Source: a virus
IMG/VR virus record: IMGVR_UViG_3300035070_002905
Span: 108,111 to 172,110 of that record
DNA length: 64,000 bases
Strand: one strand, 5' to 3'
The position numbers and the translations under genes are program-made. Of this stretch, positions 16,738 to 55,846 are shown piece after piece (position 1 is the stretch's first letter; every line of letters begins with the position of its first letter). The notes beneath the pieces are model-generated. The model had not been told where the DNA came from, did no database searches, and saw only the letters and a program-made list of their open reading frames with translations.

Positions 16738-16766
16738 TTCAATATTTTAGGGTATTGGGTTATAAG
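16738..16766 (+). promoter_or_regulatory. sigma-70-like early promoter
   Basis: TTCAAT (16738-16743), 17-bp spacer, TATAAG (16761-16766), matching six other promoters in this window. It precedes the plus-strand accessory operon. Unlike the others I see no clear stem-loop just downstream. Confidence 0.65.
16741..16749 (-). promoter_or_regulatory. late-type promoter motif TAAAATATT
   Basis: Minus-strand TAAAATATT lies 21 bp upstream of the 16720 start codon, leaving just enough room for the GAGGAG ribosome site. It overlaps the -35 region of the divergent plus-strand promoter at 16738-16766. Confidence 0.6.
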
Positions 16767-37804: not shown

Positions 37805-37815
37805 TTATATACTCC

Positions 37816-39645
37816 TTAATATCTGCCGCCTTTGCCATCGCCGAAGTTTCCGCCCATGACGTATGCTGCAATTGGATCAGTAGATGAGATTTCAGATTCG
37901 CGGCCCATGACTACAGATTCTTTCAGGTTACGTACCTGATTACCAGTAGCAAGACGAGAGATCCAGTTTTCATCTAGATGTTTAACTGAGTTTAGACCAG
38001 GTACGAGAGGCTTAACGGATAGATTAGTCTTACTGACTTTAACCTTATCAACGCCTTTAAGCTCTAGCTCGTCTATGTGGTTTTGATCTAGCACAGTACC
38101 AGGAGTCATATATAAGACACCGTGTGATAGCATGCGACCTAGCGCAGCACTCAACGGTAGCTCTTCGACGTCCTCTTGAAGTTCTTTTTGTAGAACGTTA
38201 ACGTTAACCTTCTGGCCTGGCAGGTATCCAGTATCTCCTGGATTCTCTACTAGGACATGCTTAACCATGTTCTTAGCGATCAGATCATAGTGACGCGTGT
38301 CGAGTTTATTACCTGCACCCTCGTAGATTTCACGTAGGGTATTAGTAATGTGCTTACGACCGGCGCCGGTTCCGCGTAGTTCTACTAGTTCACGAGGGTT
38401 AATCGTACCGGTAGATAGAGCGTCGCCTTGCTTGACCTGTTGACCCATCTTAACTAGAACTTCCTGCTCACGAGGAACGAAGTGTTCTTGGCCGTTGATA
38501 TAGATCTTGTGTGCATTCAGAGAGGTACGCAGAATCTCATCTACCTTACCGTTAAGGCTAGCGATGGTCGCCTTCTCTTTGAATGTACTAGGGTTAGCTA
38601 GTAGGTTACTTACTTGATCGAATGGGCTGGCACGTTTACCGGCTTTCGAGTCATGCTTCGTAGATAGGATCATCTGGGTCAATACCTCAGATGCCGATTG
38701 AGCTGCCAGTACGCCTACGTTCTCGCCTACATCTGGAACCTTAGCACGTGAATCCATGCCGTAACACTTCTGGCATACTCCGTCAGGAGCCTCACAGGTC
38801 AGCGTAGAGCGGACGGTGATGTTAGTCTTACCAGAGCTCTTAAGTTCCTTCCAGTACTCCTCGTCGATTAGATGATTAGTACCCGCCTCATAGCGGTGCA
38901 TGATCTTACCCTTGTCGCTAACCTTAGCAGAGTCACCGTTCTTAGTCCCGCAGTCGGGCTCGGTGATTACTTCATGGTATACGTTAGGAGTGATCTGCTT
39001 AAACATCGCACCAGGTTTACTAGTAGATAGCTGTGCAGATACCGTGTTACCACGACCCCAATATGACATCGCTAGTTGCTCTGCAGGACTAAGGCCCTCA
39101 GCGTACGAGCTAGTAATGGCTACAGGGATTGGCGTGCCGTCGATTCTCTTAGAGATCAGCGGTGAGCTTGTCGCCTGTTGTAATTGGTTCGGGTTACCAC
39201 GAGCCTTGGTCTTAGCCATGATCGCCGCGGTAGAGTTACGGTCTACTAGGTAGTTAAGGTTTTGATCAACCATCTTAGGCTGATACTTGTTTGTCATGTC
39301 GTTGATCATATCGTTCTTCTGCTGCTGACTTAAGTCGCCGCGAAGGTTGATCTGATCGATCTTACCTTTGAACTCTTGAAGCATCGTCTTGCGATCTTCC
39401 GAGTCATTGTAGTAATCTGCTAGTGGAGTAGAATAGCCATTAGCTGTAGCCTGACCGAAGAACTCGTTACTAAGATTAGTAATAGTATCTCCAGCTTCGC
39501 TGCCGCCGTAGGTAATAACCTTATGCATAAGGTCGTTTACTCCGCCTTTATCCAAGTGTCGAGTCACATCGTAATGCTCTTTGACGCCACTAGGAAGCAT
39601 CTTTTTTATTTTCAGCGCTCCCGCTGCGAAGACTGGTTCCGTCAC
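37816..39645 (-). CDS. RNA polymerase beta-prime C-terminal subunit
   Basis: 609 aa from a GTG at 39645 with AAGGAG six bases upstream. It carries the second half of bacterial beta-prime. Residues 129-176 contain the bridge-helix region (IMAKTKARGNPNQLQQ) and ITSSYAEGLSPAEQ (184-190). The four cysteines of zinc site 2 are complete: C232 (EPDCGT), C284, C291 and C294 (CEAPDGVCQKCYG). Residues 307-336 hold GENVGVLAAQS...LTQMILSTKHD, the trigger-loop region, with Gln324 and His331 kept. VENPGDTGYLPGQ and a C-terminal NLKESVVMGR complete the match. Compared with E. coli the large trigger-loop insertion is missing. Pairs with the 1520-aa subunit. Confidence 0.93.
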   Translation of the reverse strand: MTEPVFAAGALKIKKMLPSGVKEHYDVTRHLDKGGVNDLMHKVITYGGSEAGDTITNLSNEFFGQATANGYSTPLADYYNDSEDRKTMLQEFKGKIDQINLRGDLSQQQKNDMINDMTNKYQPKMVDQNLNYLVDRNSTAAIMAKTKARGNPNQLQQATSSPLISKRIDGTPIPVAITSSYAEGLSPAEQLAMSYWGRGNTVSAQLSTSKPGAMFKQITPNVYHEVITEPDCGTKNGDSAKVSDKGKIMHRYEAGTNHLIDEEYWKELKSSGKTNITVRSTLTCEAPDGVCQKCYGMDSRAKVPDVGENVGVLAAQSASEVLTQMILSTKHDSKAGKRASPFDQVSNLLANPSTFKEKATIASLNGKVDEILRTSLNAHKIYINGQEHFVPREQEVLVKMGQQVKQGDALSTGTINPRELVELRGTGAGRKHITNTLREIYEGAGNKLDTRHYDLIAKNMVKHVLVENPGDTGYLPGQKVNVNVLQKELQEDVEELPLSAALGRMLSHGVLYMTPGTVLDQNHIDELELKGVDKVKVSKTNLSVKPLVPGLNSVKHLDENWISRLATGNQVRNLKESVVMGRESEISSTDPIAAYVMGGNFGDGKGGRY

Positions 39646-39871: not shown

Positions 39872-40058
39872 TCTTCAGCTCCTTAGCCTTACGGTATAGT
39901 TTCGTCTTCAGGTATCTCTTCAAGCCTCGTTTGGTAGCTCCTTCAGAACCGATGGCTCTAATGGCTGCCTTAGGGACATCAACTGTCATCTTAGGAGGAT
40001 CGATGGTGACTTCCTCTGCCTGCTTAAACAGTCTAGCCTGCTCGGTAAGTGTACACAT
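39819..40058 (-). CDS. small basic protein downstream of late promoter
   Basis: 79 aa (MCTLTEQARLFKQAEEVTID...). Has one K-x-A motif (LFKQA) near the N-terminus and a basic C-terminal half (TKRGLKRYLKTKLYRKAKEL). First gene behind a late-type promoter. Translationally overlapping with the next small gene. Unknown function, probably virion- or polymerase-associated. Confidence 0.45.
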   Translation of the reverse strand: MCTLTEQARLFKQAEEVTIDPPKMTVDVPKAAIRAIGSEGATKRGLKRYLKTKLYRKAKELKSGSSTEGAGGQPKSPNT

Positions 40059-40083
40059 TTAATTTCTCCCATAGTTTACTAAG

Positions 40084-40092
40084 TATATTTTA
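40084..40092 (-). promoter_or_regulatory. late-type promoter motif TAAAATATA
   Basis: Minus-strand TAAAATATA, 26 bp before the 79-aa gene and directly after a terminator. It starts a new transcript for the beta-prime C-terminal gene and downstream head genes, independent of the beta gene. Confidence 0.65.
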
Positions 40093-40097
40093 AAGAA

Positions 40098-40121
40098 AAG
40101 GCGCCCCGAAGGACGCCTCTT
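40098..40121 (-). terminator. terminator with UUCG loop inside the polymerase region
   Basis: Minus strand GGCGTCC-TTCG-GGGCGCC, 7-bp stem with one G-U pair, flanked by AAAAAGA before and TTTTCTTT after. It ends the transcript that includes the portal and beta/beta-prime-N genes. Confidence 0.85.
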
Positions 40122-40122
40122 T

Positions 40123-40263
40123 TTATCTACGTGCTGTCTGTGCCTTATCTACCGGAGTCTCACGCTCTGGTATAATAGGACTCTTTGACTTGGCCTTACC
40201 GATATTATTAGCGGCATTAGTAGAGGCGATAGCCCTCGCCTCCTCTACTAGTGGTCTCTTCAC
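40123..40263 (-). CDS. 46-aa basic peptide overlapping the polymerase gene end
   Basis: The stop of the beta/beta-prime-N gene (TGA) overlaps a GTG start in the string GTGA, giving MKRPLVEEARAIASTNAAN... and ending in AQTARR before the terminator. Overlapping start/stop and proper termination context support translation; the peptide is too short to classify. Its composition (basic, Ala-rich) is like its neighbours. Confidence 0.4.
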   Translation of the reverse strand: MKRPLVEEARAIASTNAANNIGKAKSKSPIIPERETPVDKAQTARR

Positions 40264-43200
40264 TTCTTACGGATTCGGATAGGAGTGTTCTCTGAGATCT
40301 GTCCAGATTCCAGTGCAGCCATAGCCGCCTGTTCACTGTCGAAACTCATAGTCTCCTGCTCCATGTCCGGACTAGTCAAGTAAGATGATCCTAAGATCGC
40401 CTCGTGACCCGGTGCGTACATCGGAGAGCCATGCCCCATACGAGCATCGTGTAGATGGTTCTCAGGGAGTAGCTTATCCTTAGCCTCTTGAATTGCTTCA
40501 GGAGTCACCGGAGCGAACATCGACATTGCATCACCATCGTAATCGGCCGCGAAGCCAGGTAGATGGAGGATGTTCATACCGATTGTCTTACCGCTTGTCG
40601 GTACCGCTTTAAGCGCTAGGATATTCGTCTTCATCAATGTAGGTGCACGGTTGAGAATCACCGGTACTTCCTGACACATCTTGTTGAACGAAGCGCCTGC
40701 CGCCTGGTTGCGAGTCTCGTAAGCCTCTTTAGCCGATGCTGCATCGTAACCCTTCTGAGCCAGGTCACGCTTGATGTGCATCTCGTACATAGTCCATAGC
40801 TGCTCTTTAGGGATCTTAGCCTCGTTGAAGCCTACATCCGGAGCTGCGTAGATCGTACCACGACCAGAGATGTCCTGCTTCTTACTCAGAAGCTTGCTCT
40901 GGAAGAGACCGGTCTTAGGACCGCCTTCACCACCAATCTGCTTAAGCAAACCTTTAAGGCCCTGCTGCTTATGCTTATAGTTAGCCGGATCGCCTGCCGC
41001 CATGATAGCCTTAAGACCCTGATAGGTCTCAGAACGAACATCCTGCAGTGGCTGATACTCAGGTGTAACGATGTCTTTCAACTCGCCAACCTTCTCGTTA
41101 CTGATGAACGCATCTTTATACAGAGAGTTAACGTCTGCTACCGAAGCACGTCCACCCGTTACCGATACTGGACGCATCACTGGTGGAATGATCGGAATGT
41201 TACGTAGCATTACCGCTTTAGAGGGATCGTCGTAACCCTGCTTGTTAAGACCGTGTAGGTACTTCAACTTCTTAATCGCCTGGTCTTTCTTACTACGTGA
41301 AGTAATAGAGTGTACCTGACCTTTAAGATAGTCTACCTCGGCAGTCGTATCGATGTCCGCTAGCATTTGACTGAATGCCTCGCCGCCTACGATCATCTCA
41401 CCGTTCTCAGCCTGCTTAGTGAAGTCAGGGATAGAGCTAACGTTTACCTGACGAACAACCTCTTCGCTATCAGAATCGATCAAGTCGAATATACCAGTAG
41501 CCTTGCGCTTAACGCCAAACTTACCAGAGATCAGACCGTCGTATTCCTTCTGCTTAAGATCGAGCATTGAACGTACAGGATCCTCGAAGACTGGGTTAAC
41601 TGTAGGCTCTGCCAGCTTCATATGAGACCACTTCTGACCGTCAGGTCCACCGGTGATACTCGTATCGAATAGGCCGCCCTTCTCAGGACGTGCATCCTTA
41701 CCGTAAACCATCTTAGCATTCTGGATCTCTCCGTTAGAACGTTTAAGGATTGACTCATCGGTCAGAGGAGAAAGACTAAGCTTACCGTTACGGTGACTCA
41801 CGTCGATGCCTGAACCTACTAGGTAATCGAAGAACTTGTTCGTAGCGAATGTAGTCTTAGGCTTCGGAAGCGGTAGACCTCGTACGTACTTGTCCCAGTA
41901 TTCATTCTGATCTGTTAGCGCGCCACCTTCAGATTTAATGGTACCGATTTCCTTCAGGTTCTTACGAGCGTTCGAGCCTAGTAAGCCTAGGAACTCCATG
42001 TAACCTACTGATTTAGCACCTTCTTCACCACCTTTAGTTGGCTGACCGACGTTATCGTAGCCGCCTACCGAACGAGCCGAGTAGTTAGCGTCAACCGTCT
42101 TGTCTAGCTTAAGGATGTACTGTGGTCCAGCTAGTACGTTAGCACCGATAGTCTTACCGGTCTGCGGATCGTAGATCTCCTCGGTATCGCTCAGGCCATG
42201 CTTGGCAAGGTCATCACGAATCTTCGCAAGGTTATCCTTCTCACCGTAGTTCTGTACCATGTACGGCTGTCCGGTCTTCTTAGCGATCTTACTAGCTGCA
42301 GTCTCAAGGACCTGGCCTAGGTTGATACGCGAAGTTACCGACGCAGGGTTAAGTAGAAGGTCTACTGCTTTACCAGTCTCCTTACTATGTGGCATCTCGT
42401 GATCGTCTAGGATCAGCGATACAACACCCTTGTTGCCGTGCAGTCCAGTAATCTTATCACCCATCTCAAGGTTCTTCTCAGAACGAATGATTACGCGGAT
42501 ATTCTTACCAGAGTGGTCTACATCTACAATCTCTCCAGCCTCGTGGTGATCCCATACAATCGAAGCATCACGATACGGACTTACCAGAGTCTTATGCAGA
42601 CGTCCCAGTACTTTATCCGTATCAGACTGTTGGCGCTCCTCCATGATAGGCCAGATTAGATCGCCATGACTTAGCTTACGGCCTTTAGTAGGCTTGCCGT
42701 CCATTGCGAATCCATTAAGCTGTTCAGGCTTGTACTTACGACCGAAGTTCGCACGGAACTTAGCGGCATCTAGTACTGTTTCTTTACCGGTCTGGTAGTC
42801 AAACTTATAGCAGTGGTTACTGGTCATAGACTCGGCAGCCGACTTACTGATGATGATACCATCCTCGTGGTTAAAGCCTTTGTACGGGATGTATGCTGCG
42901 TGCAGGTTCTTACCTAGAGCAAGACTTCCGTCTTTAGTATAGTTATTATCTGCTACTACATCGCCAGGTTTAACTCGATCGCCGATCTGTAGATGACTCT
43001 CAGAGTCATCGTGGAAGCCCTTCATGTTAAACGGCATGTTATCTACCAGCTTAATCGTATGGTCTTCCTTAGTACCATCCTCGCGGATTGTAATCGACTT
43101 AGGAGTCTTACCGACTACCGTGCCTTCTACTGGGCTCTGACTTGAGAATACTCCAGCCATACGAGTGCCGTAAGAAGTACCAGTATGATCGACCGTCTGT

Positions 43201-44822
43201 ACTAGCGGCTGCTCACGTTCCTTCAGGCTTAGAGACTGAGGGATTGCCTTACCTGCCATCGTTAGACGACCGGGGTGGTTACTGTTAAAGAACGGCACAA
43301 GGTTAGTCGTTACCGTGTACATATCAGAACCTGCTGGAATCCAGTAGTCTACCTGTGCACGAGGCACCTCGGCGAACTTACCGTTACGCTGGGCCTGTAC
43401 TGTAGGAGCATCAGACTTAAGGCCGTCCGAGAAGCCTACCGTAGAGTTCATCATCTCGTTAGACGATAGGTAGTGTTCGACACCCTTACTATCTAGTACA
43501 CGAGCGTACATGTTACCCTCTTCATCACGACGTGAAGTCATGGTGAAACGCTGGTCGATACCAGCCATGCCAGATTCCGGTGTACGTGATGGATCAAGGA
43601 TACCTAGATGCGAAGGATCGACGTTACGAGCCTCGTCTGGAACACCTTGAGCCGATGCGATACCGCCGTAGCCCTGACCTAGGATTGTAGCCTTACCAAC
43701 GTTCTCAATGCTCTCTACCGGGTTTGTTTCCGTCGGTGTTGATGCCAGTGAGCTGTTGATGATGAAATTAGTGTATACCTTGTTAAAAGGCTTGGCTCCA
43801 AGTACTCCTCGAATCTTAGGGTTATTCTTGTCCACGCGGCCAAGAGCACGCTGTACATTCTTGAGGGTACCTGTAACATTCGCATTACCTTTACTGAAGT
43901 GGCTGCCGATGAAGTCCGGAAGGTTCTGCACCTTCTTGAACTGCAGGCTATCACGGTTATCTTCCTGACGTTCACCACGGCTGATATCAACCAGGTTCTT
44001 ACAGGCACGCATGATGGTCTCTGCCTCTACATGGCCGAACGACTTACCTAGGGTAGTCTCGGTAGTAGATGCATCAAGGCTAGAGCTCTCTAAGGCCTCG
44101 CGAAGGATACGAGCCTTCTCGTCGACCGGTAGACTCTTATCCTGCAGACGCTTGTTAACCATCTTACCGTATAGGTTAGTGATTACCTTGTTCTCCATAC
44201 CCTTAGATGCTTTGATGTTAACTGTAAGCAGGTCCTGAGGAATGAAGCGCGACATGTCTGCAAGGTTCATCTTGAAGACTTCAGTCAGTACTGGGATTAG
44301 CGGTACGCCGGCAGACTTAGCGCCACCTGCACGTACGTTGAAGACCTCTGTTTCAGGGTCTAGAACGATACTAAAATTCGCACCCGAGCCGGTGTTAAAG
44401 GAGGATTCCAGTTCGTCGTTATCGCGAGAGCGAGTATATACTCCAGGCTTAAGCACAATGAGGTTAGCGACATTGTAGTTGTTCCCTCTATAGATTGCAG
44501 TATGCTTACCCGTCATAGAGTAAGTGTCTGCTAGTTGAAAGTTCTTCACGGTATCGACGAGATCGCCGGTCTTCTTATCGTACATCTTAACGGTACCCTT
44601 AACCGGGTACGTTAGAGATTTACCTTTAAGAATTGCCTGCTTCTCATCCTCGTGGTCGAAGTGCTTCTTGTCTGCGTAGACATCTTCCACTTCGATTCGG
44701 TAATTGTTATCCTCAATAGGAAACGTTGAAGAAATCCCTTTGATCATCGCGTTGTCAGTCTTCTCATTGATATCATGAGGGGATGTAAACAGCGGGATTA
44801 GTTCATCAGCCTTCTTTGGCAT
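40260..44822 (-). CDS. RNA polymerase beta / beta-prime N-terminal fusion subunit
   Basis: 1520 aa. Residues 1-1017 are beta: GKHTAIYRGNNYNVANLIVL and GANFSIVLDPETEVFNVR (protrusion/lobe), AAYIPYKGFNHEDGIIISKS, EMGDKITGLHGNKGVVS, NPASVTSRINLGQVLET, and YILKLDKTVDANYSARS near the end of beta. Residues 1018-1520 are beta-prime N-terminus: SPLTDESILKRSNGEI, KGGLFDTSITGG, VTGGRASVADVNSLY, LSKKQDISGRGTI, VILNRAPTLM and FAADYDGDAMSMF. The catalytic metal-binding Asp triad is D1427, D1429, D1431. The N-terminal zinc ribbon of beta-prime is absent. The protein ends 89 residues after the active site, so beta-prime is split there and continues in the 609-aa gene. It lies one gene downstream of the portal gene. 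Confidence 0.95.
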   Translation of the reverse strand: MPKKADELIPLFTSPHDINEKTDNAMIKGISSTFPIEDNNYRIEVEDVYADKKHFDHEDEKQAILKGKSLTYPVKGTVKMYDKKTGDLVDTVKNFQLADTYSMTGKHTAIYRGNNYNVANLIVLKPGVYTRSRDNDELESSFNTGSGANFSIVLDPETEVFNVRAGGAKSAGVPLIPVLTEVFKMNLADMSRFIPQDLLTVNIKASKGMENKVITNLYGKMVNKRLQDKSLPVDEKARILREALESSSLDASTTETTLGKSFGHVEAETIMRACKNLVDISRGERQEDNRDSLQFKKVQNLPDFIGSHFSKGNANVTGTLKNVQRALGRVDKNNPKIRGVLGAKPFNKVYTNFIINSSLASTPTETNPVESIENVGKATILGQGYGGIASAQGVPDEARNVDPSHLGILDPSRTPESGMAGIDQRFTMTSRRDEEGNMYARVLDSKGVEHYLSSNEMMNSTVGFSDGLKSDAPTVQAQRNGKFAEVPRAQVDYWIPAGSDMYTVTTNLVPFFNSNHPGRLTMAGKAIPQSLSLKEREQPLVQTVDHTGTSYGTRMAGVFSSQSPVEGTVVGKTPKSITIREDGTKEDHTIKLVDNMPFNMKGFHDDSESHLQIGDRVKPGDVVADNNYTKDGSLALGKNLHAAYIPYKGFNHEDGIIISKSAAESMTSNHCYKFDYQTGKETVLDAAKFRANFGRKYKPEQLNGFAMDGKPTKGRKLSHGDLIWPIMEERQQSDTDKVLGRLHKTLVSPYRDASIVWDHHEAGEIVDVDHSGKNIRVIIRSEKNLEMGDKITGLHGNKGVVSLILDDHEMPHSKETGKAVDLLLNPASVTSRINLGQVLETAASKIAKKTGQPYMVQNYGEKDNLAKIRDDLAKHGLSDTEEIYDPQTGKTIGANVLAGPQYILKLDKTVDANYSARSVGGYDNVGQPTKGGEEGAKSVGYMEFLGLLGSNARKNLKEIGTIKSEGGALTDQNEYWDKYVRGLPLPKPKTTFATNKFFDYLVGSGIDVSHRNGKLSLSPLTDESILKRSNGEIQNAKMVYGKDARPEKGGLFDTSITGGPDGQKWSHMKLAEPTVNPVFEDPVRSMLDLKQKEYDGLISGKFGVKRKATGIFDLIDSDSEEVVRQVNVSSIPDFTKQAENGEMIVGGEAFSQMLADIDTTAEVDYLKGQVHSITSRSKKDQAIKKLKYLHGLNKQGYDDPSKAVMLRNIPIIPPVMRPVSVTGGRASVADVNSLYKDAFISNEKVGELKDIVTPEYQPLQDVRSETYQGLKAIMAAGDPANYKHKQQGLKGLLKQIGGEGGPKTGLFQSKLLSKKQDISGRGTIYAAPDVGFNEAKIPKEQLWTMYEMHIKRDLAQKGYDAASAKEAYETRNQAAGASFNKMCQEVPVILNRAPTLMKTNILALKAVPTSGKTIGMNILHLPGFAADYDGDAMSMFAPVTPEAIQEAKDKLLPENHLHDARMGHGSPMYAPGHEAILGSSYLTSPDMEQETMSFDSEQAAMAALESGQISENTPIRIRKK

Positions 44823-44823
44823 C

Positions 44824-45108
44824 TTACTCTCCTTGACGTTCTAAATATGTAACTACTACTGTATAAACTCCAGTCGCCGTACTAATAGAATCCTTACGCT
44901 CCAAGATCATTACCTCCTGGTCTGCACTGACCGAGCGGTTAAGCAGGGTCTCGTACGCAGTGATATCGTCGCTTCCCTCGGCACTGTTAGACAGCGTGAA
45001 GAAACCGATACGATATCGGTAGTTAGTCAGGTCTGGACCGCCTTGATTATTAGCCGGCAGCATCTCTGGAGATGCAGGCCCTTGGTTTTTCTCATTAAAC
45101 AGATCCAT
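44824..45108 (-). CDS. small head-region protein between portal and polymerase genes
   Basis: 94 aa from ATG 45108 (GAGGAG upstream, inside the portal gene end). Start of the sequence is MDLFNEKNQGPASP, then a beta-type region (YRYRIGFFTLSNSAEGSDD ... VYTVVVTYLERQGE). Overlaps the portal gene by 14 bases and ends one base before the polymerase start codon, so all three are likely coupled. Unknown. Confidence 0.5.
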   Translation of the reverse strand: MDLFNEKNQGPASPEMLPANNQGGPDLTNYRYRIGFFTLSNSAEGSDDITAYETLLNRSVSADQEVMILERKDSISTATGVYTVVVTYLERQGE

Positions 45109-46918
45109 TACGTGACTCCTCAAAGATTCTCTGTTGTGCCGTACGTGAGCGACGGCGTGTTGGTTTTGGTTTCGGTGCTACCGATGCGGCCTTCTGCATA
45201 CCGGCCTGAGGATCTTCCTCTACCTCGTCTGCTCCGCCCATGTATTGCTGGATGATAGTCATAACGTGGTCGTACTTCGCCTCGTCTTCGGCCTGTAGGG
45301 CCATAACCATTTCCATACGTTTCTGTTCGTCAGGCTCTTGAAGAATCGCCTGCGCTTTAGTCATGACATCTTGACGGTAATCGTTATAGCCGGACTCGTC
45401 CTCGCCATCAGATACCTCGTCTTTGTGAGCCATGTAGACTGCCTGTTCCATCTTGTACTTCATGCGTACTGATTCTTCAGCCTTATCGATCTGCTCTTGG
45501 ACAATCTTCTCGCTCTCCTTCTCGGGATCGATGTCGCATGTCTCGAGCAGGGTCTTGCCGCTGATTAGGCTAGCCTGATGTAGCTGTAGGTACATGTTCT
45601 TCAGTGCATCGTTATCGGTCAACTGGTATGGCACCAGGCTAACATCGGCTTCTTCTAGGCCTAGGTAGTTAGCGATCTGATCGACGATCCAAGTAAGATA
45701 GCGTTTAATCTTACGGTTGTACTGGTTCATGTTGTTCTCTAGTAGACGTAGGCCTACCGTAGAGCTCGTCCAGTTAGTCGTACCGCTCAATAGCTCACGG
45801 CTCACGCCCATTGCCATTAGCAGCTGCTCTTCAGCGAATTGCAGTTCCTGTGTAACCAGTAGAGATTTACCCTGACCGCCTACGTAAGCTGTACCGATCG
45901 GCACTGGACTTAGTAGTACATGGTTAGGATCCTGCTTGAATCGCTGCAGGCTTGACTTCACGTTAGTCGTGAAGTTATTCATACTCATCATCGATACCGG
46001 GTCGCCGGCAGAAGAACTCTGTTGCGGGTACAATACGCGCATCGGGTTCATATGCTCCAGGGCAATCGCCTCGTTAGCCTTCTTCAGACACTGCATGTAG
46101 AATACAGTCGAGTAGTGAGATAGTAGCGGCGGAACACCGAATCCCTCGATGAAGTCACCCATTGTAAGGCTCTTCATGTGGTGGATGGCGCCAGGCGCAA
46201 ACTTAAATTCTTTCTGTGTGCGTACAGCCTCTACGAATTCCCATGGTACAGTCGTCAGGAAGTGCGGGTCACCGATTAGGATCTTACGCTTGACGTCGCC
46301 AGGGATGTTGTAGAAGTACTCTGTATCGCCGGTAATAGGGTTATCATTGATGGAGATGTTATCCGGCTTCCACTTAATGATATTGATACGGTTTACATCT
46401 TTACTCTTCGTATCGATGCGCTTGTATATTACCTTCTGTGAACATCCAGGACATTCTCCACTGAACTGAAACTTCTTCCAGATCGCGTACTTGCCGTCCA
46501 GCGCCTTGCGGCTGTTGTAGCTAGTCTTACACGAAGGGCACTCTAGCATACGATCGATAGGAAAGTAGATAGAGGTGAAGCTGTTTCCGTAAGCATGGTA
46601 ATCGAAGCCACCGTCTGACATCTTCTCGATTAGCTTAACCGATTCGAATATCTCTTCGTACTTCTCACGGAGTTGTTTCTTCGGAGAACTCACGGTTACT
46701 TCAGTGATCGGATAGGTCGCTAGCTTACGTAGTACCTCAGCACTAGTAGGAGACTTAACGATGATGAATCGCGTCCACTTAAGAAGGTCGTGAAAACTAC
46801 GCGGGAGGAACTGACTGGATACGTCGTACGCAGGGTTCGCGTAAGTACCTAAGTCATATCGTCCGTAGTAGCCACCAGGTGTAATTGTTGGGCTAGTCCC
46901 AATCTGACCAATAGCCAT
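45095..46918 (-). CDS. portal protein with zinc-ribbon insertion
   Basis: 607 aa. Its plan is that of phage portals: N-terminal wing (HDLLKWTRFIIVKSPTSAEVLRKL), FDYHAYGNSFTSIY, a long central part with PWEFVEAVRTQKEF and GDFIEGFGVPPLL, the stem-crown region (ELQFAEEQLLMAMGVSRELLSG ... TVGLRLLENNMNQYNRKIKRYLTWIVDQI), and a charged helical C-terminus. An inserted C-x-x-C ... C-x-x-C unit (CPSC and CPGC, about 30 residues apart, near residues 130-165) predicts a zinc ribbon. One K-x-A motif (MQKAA) lies about 35 residues from the C-terminus. It is the first gene of the structural block; no terminase gene is adjacent. Confidence 0.85.
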   Translation of the reverse strand: MAIGQIGTSPTITPGGYYGRYDLGTYANPAYDVSSQFLPRSFHDLLKWTRFIIVKSPTSAEVLRKLATYPITEVTVSSPKKQLREKYEEIFESVKLIEKMSDGGFDYHAYGNSFTSIYFPIDRMLECPSCKTSYNSRKALDGKYAIWKKFQFSGECPGCSQKVIYKRIDTKSKDVNRINIIKWKPDNISINDNPITGDTEYFYNIPGDVKRKILIGDPHFLTTVPWEFVEAVRTQKEFKFAPGAIHHMKSLTMGDFIEGFGVPPLLSHYSTVFYMQCLKKANEAIALEHMNPMRVLYPQQSSSAGDPVSMMSMNNFTTNVKSSLQRFKQDPNHVLLSPVPIGTAYVGGQGKSLLVTQELQFAEEQLLMAMGVSRELLSGTTNWTSSTVGLRLLENNMNQYNRKIKRYLTWIVDQIANYLGLEEADVSLVPYQLTDNDALKNMYLQLHQASLISGKTLLETCDIDPEKESEKIVQEQIDKAEESVRMKYKMEQAVYMAHKDEVSDGEDESGYNDYRQDVMTKAQAILQEPDEQKRMEMVMALQAEDEAKYDHVMTIIQQYMGGADEVEEDPQAGMQKAASVAPKPKPTRRRSRTAQQRIFEESRNGSV

Positions 46919-46961: not shown

Positions 46962-46970
46962 AGTATTTTA
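46962..46970 (-). promoter_or_regulatory. late-type promoter motif TAAAATACT
   Basis: Minus-strand TAAAATACT about 44 bp upstream of the portal start, the start of the main structural block. One base differs from the commonest form. It lies eight bases from the -35 of the divergent early promoter. Confidence 0.5.
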
Positions 46971-46977
46971 CGATTTG

Positions 46978-47033
46978 TTCAACAATAGCCTGCCGATTTG
47001 TTATAAGTAATACGTAGGGATATACACTCTACG
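46978..47033 (+). promoter_or_regulatory. early promoter with 5' stem-loop (copy 1 of tandem pair)
   Basis: TTCAAC (46978-46983), 18-bp spacer, TATAAG (47002-47007), then TAATAC and a stem CGTAGGG / CACTCTACG-type pairing (47013-47019 with 47027-47033, one G-U). It drives the 47120 operon together with the second copy 58 bp downstream. Confidence 0.7.
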
Positions 47034-47035
47034 CT

Positions 47036-47090
47036 TTAAATATATAGTGTTCATCTTGTTATAAGTAAGATGTACAGGAGAATACTCTCC
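47036..47090 (+). promoter_or_regulatory. early promoter with 5' stem-loop (copy 2 of tandem pair)
   Basis: TTAAAT (47036-47041), 18-bp spacer, TATAAG (47060-47065) followed by TAAGATGTA and the stem GGAGA-ATAC-TCTCC (47077-47090). The -35 is weaker than in the other copies. Nearest start codon is at 47120. Confidence 0.7.
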
Positions 47091-47119: not shown

Positions 47120-47377
47120 ATGCGCATTATCGATAACAACAACGCTCGTCTTGACATCACTGCTCCAACTGGTACTATCGCTGAGAACGGCGTAGTAGAA
47201 ATCGCTGCTCCAAAACGTACAATCACTGGCCTGCTTAGCGCCGCTGCTCTTTCAGTAGTAAGCAAGCTAGATCTTAAAGTTACACTTAACGGTATGGTCG
47301 GCAAGGCTCATAAAGTTGAGTTCAGCAGCGACGTATCTGAAGCAGATATCCGCACAGCACTAAACCTCGTCAACTAG
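47120..47377 (+). CDS. small hypothetical early protein
   Basis: 85 aa behind the tandem early promoters. Balanced composition with short beta and helical segments (ARLDITAPTGTIAENGVVEIAAP ... LLSAAALSVVSKLDLKVTLNG). The first gene of the operon, likely highly expressed; unusually for this phage it uses codons with few rare triplets. No known domain. The next gene begins one base after its stop codon. Confidence 0.5.
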   Translation: MRIIDNNNARLDITAPTGTIAENGVVEIAAPKRTITGLLSAAALSVVSKLDLKVTLNGMVGKAHKVEFSSDVSEADIRTALNLVN

Positions 47378-47734: not shown

Positions 47735-47773
47735 CTTTATGCTATAAGTAATGTGTACCGAGGATTACTCCTC
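47719..47773 (+). promoter_or_regulatory. early promoter with 5' stem-loop
   Basis: TTCAAC (47719-47724), 18-bp spacer, TATAAG (47743-47748) then TAATGTGTA and the stem GAGGA-TTAC-TCCTC (47760-47773). A second hairpin (CCGGT with ACCGG) follows in the 5' leader at about 47790-47810. Confidence 0.75.
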
Positions 47774-48821: not shown

Positions 48822-49268
48822 ATGTTCGATCTATTCGGATTCTGGTTTGGTGTAACCGTATTATCAGCACCTATGCTAATTCTTGGCTTGATCCTATCGC
48901 TGGCTCTAGCCGATCTATTGGTTAAAGACATGAGCCGTGGTCGTATGGACGGCTGCAGTCATCTGTTCCCGGGCAGCAGTACTCTGCAGGCTATCCTGAA
49001 GGACTTCGGTAAAGGTGCCAAAGGCTTCTTCGAGATCCTGGTACTATTCGTAAGTGCGTTCTTCTGGGTGATGTGGTTATTCGCATGGATTAAGCATGAT
49101 ATTACCATGGTTAAATTCGTAAGCCGAGCTGCAGAAGGCCTAGCGCCATACCTAGGTTGGGTTGGTGCAGTAGTAGTTCCTGTGTTCTTGATTCGCGTAG
49201 TTGGTCGTAAGATGTTCGATGCGTACTACAAAGTTGAAACAATCCTGGCTGATAAGGAAGGTAAATAA
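48822..49268 (+). CDS. array membrane protein, paralogue 1
   Basis: 148 aa, first member of a tandem array. Shared family marks: N-terminal MFDLFGFW, TM1 (about 8-33), a basic loop with RGR, TM2 (about 68-90), then the conserved AAEGLAPYLGW before TM3 (about 112-132), and a C-terminal amphipathic YYKVETIL helix. The loops between TM1 and TM2 differ strongly from the other paralogues while the termini are conserved. The stop overlaps the next start codon (TAATG). Probably an inner-membrane protein; function unknown. Confidence 0.6.
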   Translation: MFDLFGFWFGVTVLSAPMLILGLILSLALADLLVKDMSRGRMDGCSHLFPGSSTLQAILKDFGKGAKGFFEILVLFVSAFFWVMWLFAWIKHDITMVKFVSRAAEGLAPYLGWVGAVVVPVFLIRVVGRKMFDAYYKVETILADKEGK

Positions 49269-49690
49269 TGTTAGATCTATTAGGTTTCTGGACTGCGGTA
49301 ACTGTCTTCACCCTACCGGTGCTGTTCCTATTCAGTATCGTTATGATTATCGTAACTAACTGTACGGTACATTGGGCTACTCGTGGTCGCTGTCAAGACT
49401 TCTGCTGCAAGGTTCCAGTTCTAAACAAAGTGATCGCCTGGATCGAAGCGAGTAACGACGGCCTATTCACGCTGGTCTTCTGCCTAGGTGTAGCAGAAGT
49501 AATCATGGGGCTGGTCATTTCAGTAGATAATGGTATCTCTGTAGTGCAGCTAGTGGCTGTCCTATCAGAAGCTACTGCTCCGTTCTTCTCGTGGATCGGT
49601 ATCCTAGCTCTATTCGTCATTGCTATTCGTGTAGTCTCAGATGCATACTACAAGATTGCAGATAAGCTTGAAAAGTTGGAGAGTAAGTAA
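49268..49690 (+). CDS. array membrane protein, paralogue 2
   Basis: 140 aa with MLDLLGFWTAVT start, three predicted TM helices and conserved LSEATAPFFSWIG motif before TM3, ending YYKIADKLEKLESK. A cysteine-rich loop (NCTVHWATRGRCQDFCCKV) follows TM1. The ribosome site for the next gene, GGAG, lies in its own last codons (LEKLESK). It overlaps paralogue 3 at TAATG. Confidence 0.6.
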   Translation: MLDLLGFWTAVTVFTLPVLFLFSIVMIIVTNCTVHWATRGRCQDFCCKVPVLNKVIAWIEASNDGLFTLVFCLGVAEVIMGLVISVDNGISVVQLVAVLSEATAPFFSWIGILALFVIAIRVVSDAYYKIADKLEKLESK

Positions 49691-50112
49691 TGTTTGATCT
49701 ATTAGGTTTCTGGACTGCGGTAACTCTACTTACTGGTCCTACTCTAATCATATCTATGGCACTCCTAGCGCTTGCTCTTAACGGAGCAGGTGGCTGGATT
49801 ACCCGTGGTCGCTGCGAGAATCTAGGTGAGAGCCTGCCTATCCTAAAGCAGTTCTGTAAGGGGTTAGATGATGCGCCAGAGCCGCTAGGCATGGCTATAA
49901 TCATAGTAGGCGTGGTCTTCGGGCTTGTCCTCGGGCTTGTCGCTGTAAATGCTGGCCTCAGTCTAGTGCACATCGTGTCTACTCTAGCGGAAGCTCTGGC
50001 TCCGTACTTCGGATGGATCGGTGTGGTTATCCTAGTATCGTTCGGTGCACGTGCCGTGTCTGATGCTTACTACAAAATCGCTACTAAACTTGAAAACTTG
50101 GAGAATAAATAA
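49690..50112 (+). CDS. array membrane protein, paralogue 3
   Basis: 140 aa; MFDLLGFWTAVT start with its first 30 coding bases nearly identical to paralogue 2. TM1 is alanine/leucine-rich, TM2 glycine/valine-rich (IIIVGVVFGLVLGLVAV), and LAEALAPYFGWIGVV precedes TM3. Ends YYKIATKLENLENK. The RGRC loop after TM1 matches paralogue 2. TAATG junction on both sides. Membrane protein of unknown role. Confidence 0.6.
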   Translation: MFDLLGFWTAVTLLTGPTLIISMALLALALNGAGGWITRGRCENLGESLPILKQFCKGLDDAPEPLGMAIIIVGVVFGLVLGLVAVNAGLSLVHIVSTLAEALAPYFGWIGVVILVSFGARAVSDAYYKIATKLENLENK

Positions 50113-50534
50113 TGTTAGATCTATTTGCATTCTGGACAAACACTACAATCATGATTATCCCGGTACTAATCTGCTGGAGCGTAATCGTAGTATCCTTCTT
50201 CGACTGGCGCATCGACTGCATTACCGACGGTAAGCACAAGAAGTTCCTGTACAACCGTATCCCTGGTATGAAGTCGGCTGACCAATGGATGTGTCAGAAC
50301 GACGGCCTAGGCTTCATCGTATTCCTGATCTGTGTTGCAGCAGGCTTCGGTCTACCGGTCTCGGCGTTCATGCTAGATACTTCAATGGTGCATATCATTG
50401 CTACTCTAGCCGAGTGGTCTGCACCGTACACTGCATGGGTTGACATCGTGTTAGTGGCATGGTTTAGTGTTGAAGTTGTACTTAAGCGACTAATCTCGCT
50501 TATCGATCGTATCGAAAACTTGGAGAATAAGTAA
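50112..50534 (+). CDS. array membrane protein, paralogue 4
   Basis: 140 aa and the most divergent of the tandem five: MLDLFAFWTNTT start, DWRIDCITDGKHKKF loop, TM2 (IVFLICVAAGFGLPVSAFML), LAEWSAPYTAWVDIV before TM3, and the tail ISLIDRIENLENK. The AYY-K motif is replaced by LKRLIS. Conserved ends with a changed core suggest functional diversification. TAATG junctions on both sides. Confidence 0.6.
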   Translation: MLDLFAFWTNTTIMIIPVLICWSVIVVSFFDWRIDCITDGKHKKFLYNRIPGMKSADQWMCQNDGLGFIVFLICVAAGFGLPVSAFMLDTSMVHIIATLAEWSAPYTAWVDIVLVAWFSVEVVLKRLISLIDRIENLENK

Positions 50535-50959
50535 TGTTTGATCTATTAGGTTTCTGGACTACTCTAACTCTACTAGTTGCACCTGTATTCTGGGTGGCAG
50601 GCGCGATCGTCGTAAGTCTGGTCGACTGGGAAGTGGGTCGTATCTCTAACGGTAAGACTACTAACTTCACCGATCGATTCGACTTCCTAGATATCTTCAA
50701 GCATAACCTGTTCCTGCTTCCGATACAGCGTGGTTTTCCGCTAGTACTCTGGACAGCTGCGTCGCTGGTCATGCTTCTGGTCTCTGTTATTGCATACCTG
50801 GAAGACGGTTACTACATCGTCCATATGTATGCAGGTCTATCAGAGCTACTGGCTCCGGTATTCGGCTGGGTCGGTCTACTGCTAGGTGGCTACTTCCTAG
50901 TGCACTTCGTGCTTAAGAAGATGTACACGTTGAGCGAAAAGATTGATCGCTTAAGCTAG
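50534..50959 (+). CDS. array membrane protein, paralogue 5
   Basis: 141 aa; MFDLLGFWTTLT start, loop DWEVGRISNGKTTNF, TM2 (LVLWTAASLVMLLVSVIAYL), LSELLAPVFGWVGLL before TM3 and KKMYTLSEKIDRLS at the end. It ends four bases before the first of two tandem terminators, closing the operon. Confidence 0.6.
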   Translation: MFDLLGFWTTLTLLVAPVFWVAGAIVVSLVDWEVGRISNGKTTNFTDRFDFLDIFKHNLFLLPIQRGFPLVLWTAASLVMLLVSVIAYLEDGYYIVHMYAGLSELLAPVFGWVGLLLGGYFLVHFVLKKMYTLSEKIDRLS

Positions 50960-51039: not shown

Positions 51040-51225
51040 ATGAAGTATAGTGAACTGGCGCAGACGGCGCTTAAGCATGCAGAACACAGAAAGATATTCG
51101 TTGCAGAGGTATCATCACTGCAGGAAATTAACCGTGCGATTAAGAAGGGAGTTACAAAAGAAAAACGCCAGGCTCTCGAGGAGGCTGGCGTTAGATATGC
51201 TAAGGCTATCTTAGCGAAAGGGTAG
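51040..51225 (+). CDS. small basic helical protein
   Basis: 61 aa with a very strong GGAGGAAGG ribosome site one base from the ATG. Helical and basic (ELAQTALKHAEHRKIFVAEV ... KKGVTKEKRQALEEAG). It stands alone between the double terminator and the convergent fibre gene, overlapping its end by 20 bases. Unknown; possibly a small regulator. Confidence 0.45.
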   Translation: MKYSELAQTALKHAEHRKIFVAEVSSLQEINRAIKKGVTKEKRQALEEAGVRYAKAILAKG

Positions 51226-52123
51226 CTTGTCGGATGCGTACAGCGGCTTGGCTATCGCCGGTACTGACTACTTCAGATAGAGTAATCGATCCGGCTGCTG
51301 CATCTGCCGTCCAGTCAAACTGGTTGACACCTTGCAGGAATACTTCGATACTACCTGGATCGGTAAGATCGATAGGGTCTGCTCCGCCACCTACTTGGAT
51401 TGGCACGTTGCTAGAGCCTGCAGGTACGGTAACGATCTGCGTATTGTACTTCACGGTAGACTGTCCGATATCAGCAGCCTGAACGGTAGTCTTCATGTTA
51501 TACAGAGCGATGGTCGCATCGTCTAGGCTAGCCGCACCGAAAGGTACAGTTACCGCCATAAGGATGATCGTATTGCCATCTAGCGCAGGTGGAATCGGTG
51601 GAGTGCCTACTGCATGATATGTAGCCTGACTAGCAATCTCTGCAACCCATACCGGCGAGTTAGCCGTAGGTACGAAGTCAGATGCTGTAGGTGCACGGCG
51701 TGTAGCTAGTACGAAGTACGTAGCATCCTGTGCGTTACTCGGAGGCGGAATCATTTGGAATGTATCTGCCTGATCGTGTACTGCCAGATTAGGTACATCG
51801 ATACCGCGGGCGCCGTCTAGGATCAACCAAGTACCGAAGCCGTAAGCATGAGTCAGCGAGAAGCCTACGTAAGAGTAGTCGCCGATGTACGAACCAGGAC
51901 CGTATAGAGAGTTGCCTGCACCGGTAAGTGCGTAACCTGCAGAAGCAGCTGCCAGAGCAGAACGGTTTGCACCGCCGGTAAAATCATCTACTGCCTGTGC
52001 GACTAACTGTACGTTATTGTCTAGGTTTTGTAGAGGACGGTTATCAACCGTATAGTAGTAAGGGTCCAGAGCGGTGTAGTATTCTACAGCCTCTAGATCC
52101 TCAAAAACTTTTGTATTTGCCAT
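51206..52123 (-). CDS. isolated tail-fibre-type protein
   Basis: 305 aa from ATG 52123 (AAGGAAAATTCCTA upstream). The N-terminus EYYTALDPYYYTVDNRPLQNLDNN matches a motif (DPY-x-Y-x-V-D-N-R-P-L-x-x-L-x-x-N) seen at the start of baseplate or fibre proteins in other large phages. The remainder is Ala/Gly/Thr-rich beta sequence. It is the only structural gene on this side of the genome and has its own late-type promoter, suggesting it was inserted or relocated among early genes. Confidence 0.6.
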   Translation of the reverse strand: MANTKVFEDLEAVEYYTALDPYYYTVDNRPLQNLDNNVQLVAQAVDDFTGGANRSALAAASAGYALTGAGNSLYGPGSYIGDYSYVGFSLTHAYGFGTWLILDGARGIDVPNLAVHDQADTFQMIPPPSNAQDATYFVLATRRAPTASDFVPTANSPVWVAEIASQATYHAVGTPPIPPALDGNTIILMAVTVPFGAASLDDATIALYNMKTTVQAADIGQSTVKYNTQIVTVPAGSSNVPIQVGGGADPIDLTDPGSIEVFLQGVNQFDWTADAAAGSITLSEVVSTGDSQAAVRIRQATLSLR

Positions 52124-52154: not shown

Positions 52155-52163
52155 GATATTTTA
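52155..52163 (-). promoter_or_regulatory. late-type promoter motif TAAAATATC
   Basis: Minus-strand TAAAATATC, 32 bp before the fibre gene start and one base away from the start codon of the divergent SNF2 helicase gene. Confidence 0.6.
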
Positions 52164-54018: not shown

Positions 54019-54063
54019 CGGAGAATTGTTATAAGTAAGTTGTAGGGAGATATACTGTCTCCC
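54006..54063 (+). promoter_or_regulatory. early promoter with 5' stem-loop
   Basis: GTCAAT (54006-54011), 18-bp spacer, TATAAG (54030-54035), TAAGTTGTA, then the perfect stem GGGAGA / TCTCCC (54045-54050 and 54058-54063) with a 7-base loop TATACTG. Its -35 lies inside the last helicase codons. Confidence 0.75.
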
Positions 54064-54083: not shown

Positions 54084-54527
54084 ATGTTTGATCTATTCGG
54101 TTTCTGGTCTGCTGTTTCTATGATGACTGTAGCTCCTATGCTACTGTGCTATTATGGGATAGTTCAGTTCGTTCGACTGGAATGTATGCTGATTACTAAA
54201 GGTGAGCGTGACGATTGGCATAGTAAGATGTGGATGGGTAAACAGATAGAGCAGGGTATCGACGACTTTCTGTTCAACCTACCGTACGCATCGTATGCAA
54301 TAGTAGTTCCGTCGGCTATGCTAAACATACTAGTAGTAATGGGCTGGTTATTTAGTGATATCGATATGACATGGGTACAATGTGTTGCTAAACTATCTGA
54401 AGATCTAGCTCCACTATTCGGTTGGGTATTCGCAGTAGCTGGTCCAGTGATCCTGTTCCACATTGTAGCTCAGAAGATGTACGCCCTATCTAAAAAAGTG
54501 GACAAAGCTCTTGAAGCTAAAAATTAA
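54084..54527 (+). CDS. array membrane protein, dispersed paralogue 6
   Basis: 147 aa, separate from the tandem array by 3.1 kb. It starts MFDLFGFWSAVS, has TM1, a KGERDDW loop, TM2 (YAIVVPSAMLNILVVMGWLF), LSEDLAPLFGWVF before TM3 and a C-terminal KKMYALSKKVDKAL. Closest in the C-terminal part to paralogue 5. It has its own early promoter and is followed by a hairpin rather than a canonical terminator. Confidence 0.6.
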   Translation: MFDLFGFWSAVSMMTVAPMLLCYYGIVQFVRLECMLITKGERDDWHSKMWMGKQIEQGIDDFLFNLPYASYAIVVPSAMLNILVVMGWLFSDIDMTWVQCVAKLSEDLAPLFGWVFAVAGPVILFHIVAQKMYALSKKVDKALEAKN

Positions 54528-54571: not shown

Positions 54572-55342
54572 CTAAACCAGTTCGTCCTGTAAGACCTCGA
54601 ACGCACGATCTTTAAGATCCTTCAAGTATTGGCGAGTAAGCTCCGGCTTCTCGTCAATAATTTGAGCGTAAGATTTCTTTTTTCCATCATCCGTAAGACC
54701 GTAGAGATCCTTAATGATTTCTGCCTCATCTCCAAAGGTATCTACTACATCGTACATACGATCAAGTAGAATCTCATAGTCAGCCTGACCCATCCCATCG
54801 ATGACCGGAATGTCATCCTCGTTTACACAGTCAAGGTAGAACGTTAGGAATGCCGTTTGACTCAGTTCGTTAAGATCCTTCTTGCTAGCATCCGGAAACT
54901 CTGCCTGTAGTTGAGCCATCGTAGGCTCGCGACCTAACTCCTCTTTGAACTTACGGATCTTAACAGATAGCTGCTGCTTCTGTGTCGGTAGGGCTACCAG
55001 ACGGAATTCACTCATAGCTTTCATCTGGCGCTGGTACACCCACCAGCCTGCGTACGTTAGGAAGCGCATGCCGGTAGAGTTATCAAACTTGTCCAGGCCT
55101 ACTAGAAGTCCCTCGTTACCTGCAGAGATCAGTTCGATGAACTGTTCGATATCACCGTTGCTCAATTTTTTAGCCTGCTTAAAGACGAAGCGTAGGTTGC
55201 TCGCGATTAACTGGCTCTTGGCACGTGCTCGATCGATCGACGGTGCGTCCTCATCGAAAAAGATATCTAAGAGTGCAGCCTCTTCTTCTTTCGATAGGAT
55301 TGGATGCTCGCAGATCTCAGAGTAGTACTTGCTTAGGTCCAT
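54572..55342 (-). CDS. RNA polymerase sigma factor, sigma-70 family
   Basis: 256 aa. Region 1.2-like start (DLSKYYSEICEHPILSKEEEAALL), then region 2 with NLRFVFKQAKKL, EFI-type ELISAGNEGLLVGLDKFD and RFLTYAGWWVYQRQMKAM, which includes the -10 recognition helix. Region 3 is represented by LPTQKQQLSVKIRKFKEELG and region 4 by a shortened helix set (YAQIIDEKPELTRQYLKDLKDR). So a complete but compact primary-type sigma. The gene has its own sigma-70-like early promoter with a 5' hairpin. With the phage-encoded beta/beta-prime subunits this suggests a full phage transcription machine. Confidence 0.9.
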   Translation of the reverse strand: MDLSKYYSEICEHPILSKEEEAALLDIFFDEDAPSIDRARAKSQLIASNLRFVFKQAKKLSNGDIEQFIELISAGNEGLLVGLDKFDNSTGMRFLTYAGWWVYQRQMKAMSEFRLVALPTQKQQLSVKIRKFKEELGREPTMAQLQAEFPDASKKDLNELSQTAFLTFYLDCVNEDDIPVIDGMGQADYEILLDRMYDVVDTFGDEAEIIKDLYGLTDDGKKKSYAQIIDEKPELTRQYLKDLKDRAFEVLQDELV

Positions 55343-55360
55343 GTGTTCTCCTTTGTGTTA

Positions 55361-55408
55361 AAATGTCCCCTTCATTTAGATTATAACATAGCGAGAAATC
55401 TTATTGAA
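55361..55408 (-). promoter_or_regulatory. early promoter of the sigma gene with 5' stem-loop
   Basis: Minus strand TTCAAT (55408-55403), 17-bp spacer, TATAAT (55385-55380), then AAATG-AAGGGGA-CATTT, a 5-bp stem at 55377-55361. Same architecture as the plus-strand copies, so the sigma gene belongs to the early class. Confidence 0.75.
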
Positions 55409-55457
55409 GAGGGGGTACCCCTATTGATTATTTTAAGCGGGCACTGGGAAAATCGAG

Positions 55458-55466
55458 TAAAATATA
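55458..55466 (+). promoter_or_regulatory. late-type promoter motif TAAAATATA (plus strand)
   Basis: TAAAATATA, 28 bp before the 60-aa gene, immediately followed by ATTATAC. One of the few copies on the plus strand; it could also act as an extended -10. Confidence 0.5.
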
Positions 55467-55676: not shown

Positions 55677-55798
55677 TGGAAAAGAGTTCAGAGATTCACT
55701 TGACAGAGGGTGAGAAAGCACAAGTACGCGCCGGTAGTTTACCGGAGAGGTTCGACGGGTGGTATACACTCGAAGAGTTGCAAGAGATGATTCAATAA
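55676..55798 (+). CDS. 40-aa hypothetical peptide
   Basis: MEKSSEIHLTEGEKAQVRAGSLPERFDGWYTLEELQEMIQ, coupled to the preceding gene by TGATG. Acidic; resembles the small hydrophilic peptides common before phage SSB genes. The -35 of the next early promoter is inside its last codons. Confidence 0.45.
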   Translation: MEKSSEIHLTEGEKAQVRAGSLPERFDGWYTLEELQEMIQ

Positions 55799-55846
55799 AA
55801 CAGACAAACCTGTTATAATTAAAGTGTAGGGAATGGATTACTCTAC
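55791..55846 (+). promoter_or_regulatory. early promoter with 5' stem-loop before SSB
   Basis: TTCAAT (55791-55796), 17-bp spacer, TATAAT (55814-55819), TAAAGTGTA, then GTAGGG pairing with CTCTAC (55826-55831 and 55841-55846, one G-U pair) around a 9-base loop. It drives the SSB gene. Confidence 0.75.

What the first reader, a model, noticed from the sequence alone, without database searches (positions are those of the whole stretch)
54572..55408. A sigma-70 factor with an early-type promoter suggests a self-contained phage transcription cascade
The phage encodes its own sigma as well as beta and beta-prime. The sigma gene alone on this side is on the minus strand, and its promoter has the same TTCAAT-17-TATAAT plus hairpin architecture as plus-strand early promoters, whereas structural genes carry TAAAATAT. 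The simplest model: host polymerase makes sigma early, then sigma plus the phage polymerase read late promoters.
Basis: inference. Interest (0 to 1): 0.7.

Follow-up and report, generated by a model that had tools for sequence, protein, structure and literature searches.

The report
Two-sigma phage with packaged RNA polymerase
This gene is a real sigma factor, one of two made by a group of large phages that also carry their own bacterial-type RNA polymerase inside the virus particle, and the phage genomes hold two matching kinds of promoter, so the phage appears to run its own early-to-late gene switch by changing sigma factors.

Summary
The gene is a genuine sigma-70-family factor (256 aa). 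Its promoter is TTCAAT-17-TATAAT, and structural genes carry TAAAATA. The cascade needs rewriting.

(1) The phage encodes a second sigma outside the window (record 78468-79157). In the relative Salmonella phage Arash the published virion proteome contains RNAP beta, beta' and this second sigma at roughly equal spectra per residue, but not the window sigma. So phage RNAP probably enters with the DNA.

(2) Across 11 related genomes there are two phage-specific promoter classes: early TTCAAT-N16-18-TG(G/T)TATAAG, and late TAAAATA with no shared -35. The early class prefers G at -7, so host sigma70 is an unlikely main reader.

(3) The window sigma has an early-class promoter close to host consensus; in most relatives its promoter is host-type TTGAC-17-TA.

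(4) Its core-binding helix is altered in the sampled RNAP-carrying phages and kept in nearly all sampled phages without RNAP.

Best model: virion RNAP with the packaged sigma reads early promoters; the window sigma then redirects the phage core to late promoters. Which sigma reads which class is unproven. Reviews say RNAP-carrying jumbo phages lack recognisable sigma factors; this group has both.

The parts
54572..55342 (-). sigma-1: sigma-70 family factor, 256 aa (non-virion sigma)
   Evidence: Pfam, PHROGs, NCBIfam, fold match to sigmaA; homologues D69_0246 and Arash gp196
55403..55408 (-). -35 element TTCAAT of the sigma-1 gene
   Evidence: TTCAAT is the -35 consensus of the early class
55380..55385 (-). 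-10 element TATAAT (as TGTTATAAT) of the sigma-1 gene, 17 nt from the -35
55412..55421 (.). GGGGTACCCC palindrome just upstream of the sigma-1 -35; not a transcript hairpin
40260..44822 (-). RNAP beta fused to N-terminal beta', 1520 aa, with ADYDGD active-site motif
   Evidence: Arash homologue Gp206 is in the virion
37816..39645 (-). RNAP C-terminal beta', 609 aa
   Evidence: Pfam RNA_pol_Rpb1_5; Arash homologue Gp216 is in the virion
45095..46918 (-). portal protein; first gene of the operon that leads into the RNAP fusion
   Evidence: PHROG 16240; synteny with Arash and D69
46964..46970 (-). late motif TAAAATA before the portal/RNAP operon
40086..40092 (-). late motif TAAAATA before the small ORF and C-terminal beta'
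52157..52163 (-). late motif TAAAATA before gene 51206-52123(-)
55458..55464 (+). late motif TAAAATA on the + strand, before ORF 55494, divergent from sigma-1
54030..54035 (+). early -10 TATAAG before 54084-54527(+)
47002..47007 (+). early -10 TATAAG
47060..47065 (+). early -10 TATAAG before 47120-47377(+)
47743..47748 (+). early -10 TATAAG
55791..55819 (+). TTCAAT-17-TATAAT early promoter with 5' hairpin, the second exact copy in the record
16743..16766 (.). divergent late (TAAAATA, -) and early (TATAAG, +) -10 elements close together, 24 nt end to end

Best explanation
54572-55342 encodes the non-virion sigma (sigma-1) of a two-sigma, one-core phage transcription system. SHOWN here: sigma-1 is a sigma-70 protein with regions 1.2-like, 2, 3 and 4; the phage also encodes one RNAP core (beta' split after the catalytic domain, its first part fused to beta) and a second sigma (sigma-v); all ten near-full-length close genomes carry all three, and two more distant RNAP phages do too; two conserved promoter classes exist, early TTCAAT-N16-18-TG(G/T)TATAAG and late TAAAATA. 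SHOWN by others for Arash: beta, beta' and sigma-v, but not sigma-1, are in the virion. INFERRED: core plus sigma-v is injected and reads the early class at once. Sigma-1 is made early, by host RNAP from a host-type promoter in most relatives and from an early/host hybrid promoter here. Sigma-1 then replaces sigma-v on the phage core and directs it to late promoters, including those of the RNAP and portal genes, so that new core and sigma-v are made and packaged.
For: Sigma identity. Triad conserved. Early class 186/920 regions vs 6.4 expected, late class 76/268 vs 4.5, each on its own strand in 11 genomes. Early class is not host consensus: G at -7 in 192 sites vs T in 20, TTCAAT not TTGACA at -35. 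Arash virion: Gp206, Gp216, Gp10 at 2.3, 2.0, 2.0 spectra per residue, Gp196 not listed (PMC10585845). Sigma-1 gene promoter is host-type in 8-9 of 11 genomes. Sigma-1 core-binding helix lost E407 in 8 of 8 RNAP-bearing records, kept in 19 of 20 without; phage beta' clamp helix lost basic residues. Early -35 is constant across clades while sigma-1 region 4 diverges most. All well-studied virion RNAPs serve early genes (phiKZ, AR9, N4).
Against: No transcript timing or binding data. Sigma-1 is the more canonical sigma (recognisable region 4, W433/W434 equivalents), and the early class is the one with a -35, which would suit sigma-1 better. Sigma-1 has lost the serine of the -7 pocket, although late promoters keep T-7. 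The virion evidence is from Arash, whose sigma-v is 46% identical to the one here; a packaged enzyme could be carry-over, as its authors say. Relatives share ancestry, so helix counts overstate independence.
Confidence: 0.5

Rival explanations
1. Reverse pairing: sigma-1, made by host RNAP, reads the early TTCAAT-TATAAG class (with phage or host core); sigma-v with the phage core reads the late TAAAATA class and is packaged to seed the next cycle, since the RNAP genes lie behind late promoters.
For: Sigma-1 has the more complete sigma-70 architecture and the early class has the more complete promoter. Sigma-1 has lost the -7 pocket serine and early promoters lack T-7. A host-type promoter puts sigma-1 at the top of a cascade. 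In YerA41 the packaged sigma is a late gene.
Against: Injecting a late-specific holoenzyme would turn on late genes first. Virion RNAPs studied so far serve early genes. Early -35 is conserved across clades while sigma-1 region 4 is not.
Confidence: 0.25
2. Sigma-1 works like T4 gp55 or SPO1 gp28: it takes over the host core and directs it to late (or middle) promoters; the phage RNAP with sigma-v serves another phase.
For: Most phage sigma factors of this broad family occur in phages with no RNAP of their own and must use host core. Sigma-1 keeps the general sigma-70 fold.
Against: The helix that contacts host beta' is altered at E407 and I410 in the RNAP-bearing phages and kept in those without.
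Confidence: 0.15
3. One reading: host polymerase transcribes the early genes including sigma; the phage polymerase acts only late, with this sigma.
For: The window sigma promoter is close to host consensus, and relatives have a small set of TTGAC-17-TA promoters (33 early-strand regions, 3.8 expected).
Against: Most early promoters prefer G at -7 and use TTCAAT at -35. Core plus a second sigma is in the virion of Arash.
Confidence: 0.08

Closest known systems
Salmonella phage Arash ('Arashvirus', OQ632216; PMC10585845) and Vibrio phages D69/D181/D148
   Same: Same group: same beta fusion, sigma-1, sigma-v, gene layout and both promoter classes
   Different: The paper lists the RNAP subunits and one sigma in the virion but reports no promoters and no cascade (one search finds no mention of promoter); sigma-1 is on the other strand in D69; sigma-1 has a host-type promoter in Arash
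phiKZ/AR9 virion and non-virion RNAPs
   Same: Multisubunit beta/beta' core in the virion, no alpha, beta' split after the catalytic domain
   Different: Those phages have two cores and no recognisable sigma; here one core and two sigma-70 factors were found
Yersinia phage YerA41 (PMC7354516)
   Same: RNAP subunits and a sigma factor found in particles; that sigma is a late gene
   Different: Separate beta and beta' genes of about 25% identity; one sigma reported, RNAP genes early; not recovered by the sigma-v search
T4 gp55 late sigma
   Same: A phage sigma directing a -10-only late promoter (T4 TATAAATA, recalled)
   Different: T4 uses host core with gp33 and the sliding clamp; sigma-1 has full sigma-70 architecture and its phage has its own core
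Poxvirus virion RNAP with packaged early factor (works-like analogy, recalled)
   Same: Core and early initiation factor made late and packaged; late factor made after infection and not packaged
   Different: Unrelated initiation factors; analogy only

Membership tests
Sigma-70 family (sigma-1) | Region 2 above the curated family threshold | tested here: met
   PF04542 33 bits against cutoff 24
Sigma-70 family (sigma-1) | Regions 3 and 4 and overall fold | tested here: met
   Profile aligns with SigA over query 36-251; Foldseek E 3e-10 to sigmaA, domains placed loosely (TM 0.4)
Sigma-70 family (sigma-v) | Sigma-70 domains above curated threshold | tested here: met
   PF04539 region 3 in all three homologues; region 2 weak; region 1.2 not seen; fold match E 3e-7 from a model of pLDDT 70
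Virion RNAP phages (phiKZ type) | Beta and beta' present in the virion | not testable with these tools
   Shown by mass spectrometry for Arash only; inferred here by homology
Virion RNAP phages (phiKZ type) | Second, non-virion RNAP core | tested here: not met
   One beta fusion per near-full-length genome with the phage beta profile; a very distant second core could be missed
Virion RNAP phages (phiKZ type) | No recognisable sigma factor | tested here: not met
   Two sigma genes per genome
T4 gp55-type late sigma on host core | Binds host core | not testable with these tools
   Indirect: host-core contact motif altered in sigma-1
Host-sigma70 early transcription | Early promoters match TTGACA-17-TATAAT | tested here: not met
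   TTGACA at control level and G preferred at -7 in the main early class; a small separate host-type set exists

The most novel reading that the evidence does not exclude
A phage clade whose virions carry a complete sigma-70-type RNA polymerase holoenzyme, and which switches from early to late genes by exchanging a packaged sigma for a newly made one on the same phage core: a sigma cascade independent of the host enzyme apart from making the second sigma.
Probability: 0.45. Interest if true: 0.82.

Novelty: new variant of a known kind. Interest (0 to 1): 0.66.

Why it matters
Current reviews sort large phages into those with their own multisubunit RNAP and no recognisable sigma, and those with sigma but no RNAP. 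This group has both, twice over for sigma, with two clean promoter classes. It would be a tractable system (Arash grows on Salmonella Typhimurium ATCC 14028) for asking how sigma factors co-evolve with a non-bacterial core, how a holoenzyme is packaged, and whether phage RNAPs descend from sigma-using enzymes.

Tried and rejected
1) TTCAAT-17-TATAAT as the general early promoter: only two exact copies; the -35 half is right, the -10 consensus is TATAAG. 2) A late -35 element (GGTTAC) in the Arash clade: traced to the downstream part of divergent early promoters lying back-to-back with late ones, so dropped. 3) Using the distant triad phages G012 and G022 to decide which sigma reads which promoter: neither motif class is enriched there. 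4) RNA hairpin as a property of the sigma promoter: no predicted fold; for the whole early class the folding excess is only slightly above the upstream control. 5) Host-type promoter ranking: sigma-1 ranks first in the window record (tied) but only about 10th to 13th where ranked in relatives and 40th in D69, so 'best host promoter' is not general, though the TTGAC-17-TA form at sigma-1 is widespread.

Full report
WHAT WAS CHECKED. The window is bases 108111-172110 of a 172,110-base IMG/VR virus record (add 108110 to window coordinates for record coordinates). The ORF at 54572-55342(-) is a sigma-70-family protein by Pfam, PHROGs and NCBIfam. Close homologues are in Vibrio phages D69/D181/D148 (61%) and Salmonella phage Arash gp196 (48%). 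Its AlphaFold model (pLDDT 83) matches sigmaA chains at E 3e-10, and the family profile aligns with SigA through region 4.

THE POLYMERASE. Beta and N-terminal beta' are one 1520-aa polypeptide at 40260-44822(-); C-terminal beta' is 37816-39645(-). The split falls after the ADYDGD catalytic motif, the site the review PMC7598289 describes for jumbo-phage and cyanobacterial enzymes. The RNAP genes lie on the structural strand next to the portal gene and behind TAAAATA motifs (46970-, 40092-).

A SECOND SIGMA. The Arash paper (PMC10585845) lists the virion proteome: Gp206 (beta fusion, most spectra), Gp216 (beta') and Gp10, a different sigma, are present; Gp196 is not listed. Spectra per residue are 2.3, 2.0 and 2.0, which suggests a roughly equimolar holoenzyme (spectral counts are only semi-quantitative). 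The Gp10 homologue in this record is at 78468-79157(-), outside the window; it passes the Pfam Sigma70_r3 cutoff. The authors themselves mention either early transcription or simple carry-over.

CONSERVATION OF THE TRIAD. Eight further IMG/VR relatives were used. Beta fusion, sigma-1 and sigma-v are each present in every one of the ten near-full-length genomes: this record, D69, Arash and G002-G008 (in G008 beta and beta' N-terminal part are separate pieces). Two more distant RNAP phages (G012, G022) also have a sigma-1-like gene, a sigma-v-like gene and the core.

TWO PROMOTER CLASSES. With genes called by one script on all genomes, an EM search found an early-strand motif and a late-strand motif in this record, D69 and Arash. 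Over 11 genomes GNTATAAG occurs in 186 of 920 early-strand upstream regions (6.4 expected from dinucleotide shuffles) and 4 of 268 late-strand ones. TAAAATA occurs in 76 of 268 late-strand regions (4.5 expected) and 22 of 920 early-strand ones (11 expected). 'Early' and 'late' are assigned from gene content and strand, not from transcript timing. The early class has a -35 element TTCAAT at 16-18 nt (28% with at least 5 of 6 matches against 1.1% at shifted positions; TTGACA 1.4% against 1.1%) and prefers G at -7 (192 G, 33 C, 20 T, 12 A). Host sigma70 depends on T at -7 and TTGACA at -35 (established knowledge; PMC7598289 describes the flipped T-7), so the bulk early class is unlikely to be read mainly by host holoenzyme. 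The late class fixes A-11 and T-7 and has no shared -35. Several late/early pairs lie head to head with abutting -10 elements (TATTTTAGGGTATAAG).

HOW SIGMA-1 IS MADE. In Arash and G002-G009 the sequence before sigma-1 holds a host-type promoter, TTGAC(T/A)-17-TA (read directly; eight of these nine also appear in the pattern list, Arash being missed there because its start was mis-called). In the window record it is TTCAAT-17-TGTTATAAT, which fits both the early class and host sigma70 and is the best-scoring host-type intergenic site there, tied with the one at 55814+. D69 has neither clearly. Sigma-1 lies on the late strand in 10 of 11 genomes but, in this record and in Arash, next to early-strand genes.

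WHICH CORE. In E. coli sigma70 the region 2.2 helix QEGNIGL contacts the beta' clamp helices (established). In the eight RNAP-bearing records examined, the glutamate position (E407) is A, V or S. In 19 of 20 records without detectable RNAP it remains E (0 of 8 against 19 of 20, Fisher about 3e-6 by hand; a 0-of-9 version gave 1e-6; shared ancestry and incomplete records make this overstated). The phage beta' clamp helix has lost several of the basic residues of the bacterial one. Changes on both sides suggest that sigma-1 is tuned to the phage core.

WHICH SIGMA READS WHICH CLASS. Not settled. For sigma-v with early and sigma-1 with late: packaging with the core, the order of events, and conservation of the early -35 across clades whose sigma-1 region 4 has diverged most (23-28% identity against 38-41% for the same part of sigma-v). 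Against: sigma-1 is the more canonical sigma and has lost the -7 pocket serine. I give about 0.5 to the first pairing, 0.25 to the reverse, the rest to host-core models.

NOVELTY. Reviews state that RNAP-carrying jumbo phages lack recognisable sigma factors and that sigma-carrying ones lack RNAP (PMC7598289; PMC7824862; PMC13282480). YerA41 is a precedent for RNAP plus one packaged sigma (PMC7354516), and the Arash paper lists the parts. In the papers I could search I found no report of the promoter classes or of a two-sigma cascade. Most subscription papers and bioRxiv were not searchable.

Noticed in passing
48822-50959(+) and 54084-54527(+): Five tandem ORFs of 140-148 aa are paralogues (26-43% identity), hydrophobic, starting M(F/L)DL(F/L)(G/A)FW; the ORF beside sigma (54084-54527) begins the same way and looks like a sixth member by eye. 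No PHROG match for the first.
   Followed up: partly
Several + strand early promoters, e.g. 54030, 47060, 47743, 55814: A short RNA hairpin (e.g. GAGGAATACTCCTC) begins within a few nucleotides of the predicted transcript start, which may protect early mRNA 5' ends.
   Followed up: partly
16743-16766, and Arash 139413(-), 137637(-), 109255(-): Divergent early and late promoters whose -10 elements abut or nearly so (TATTTTAGGGTATAAG in Arash-like genomes), so that the two enzymes could hardly bind together: a possible built-in switch.
   Followed up: partly
Whole record and relatives: TATAAT is depleted: 62 copies against 110 expected here, 11 against 34 in Arash, 102 against 180 in D69, as if host -10 sites were avoided.
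   Followed up: no
Arash gp217 (141261-142679): A helicase gene that overlaps the end of the beta' gene in Arash is packaged at a similar spectral density (2.4 per residue) to the RNAP; no homologue of it was found in the window record by tblastn.
   Followed up: partly
D69 record 23371-23910: Annotated as Srd anti-sigma factor, so host sigma70 may be targeted as well.
   Followed up: no
G008 135558-140032 and G009 37449-42249: In these divergent relatives beta and N-terminal beta' are matched in two separate pieces instead of one fusion; G008 has one TGA inside the beta match.
   Followed up: no
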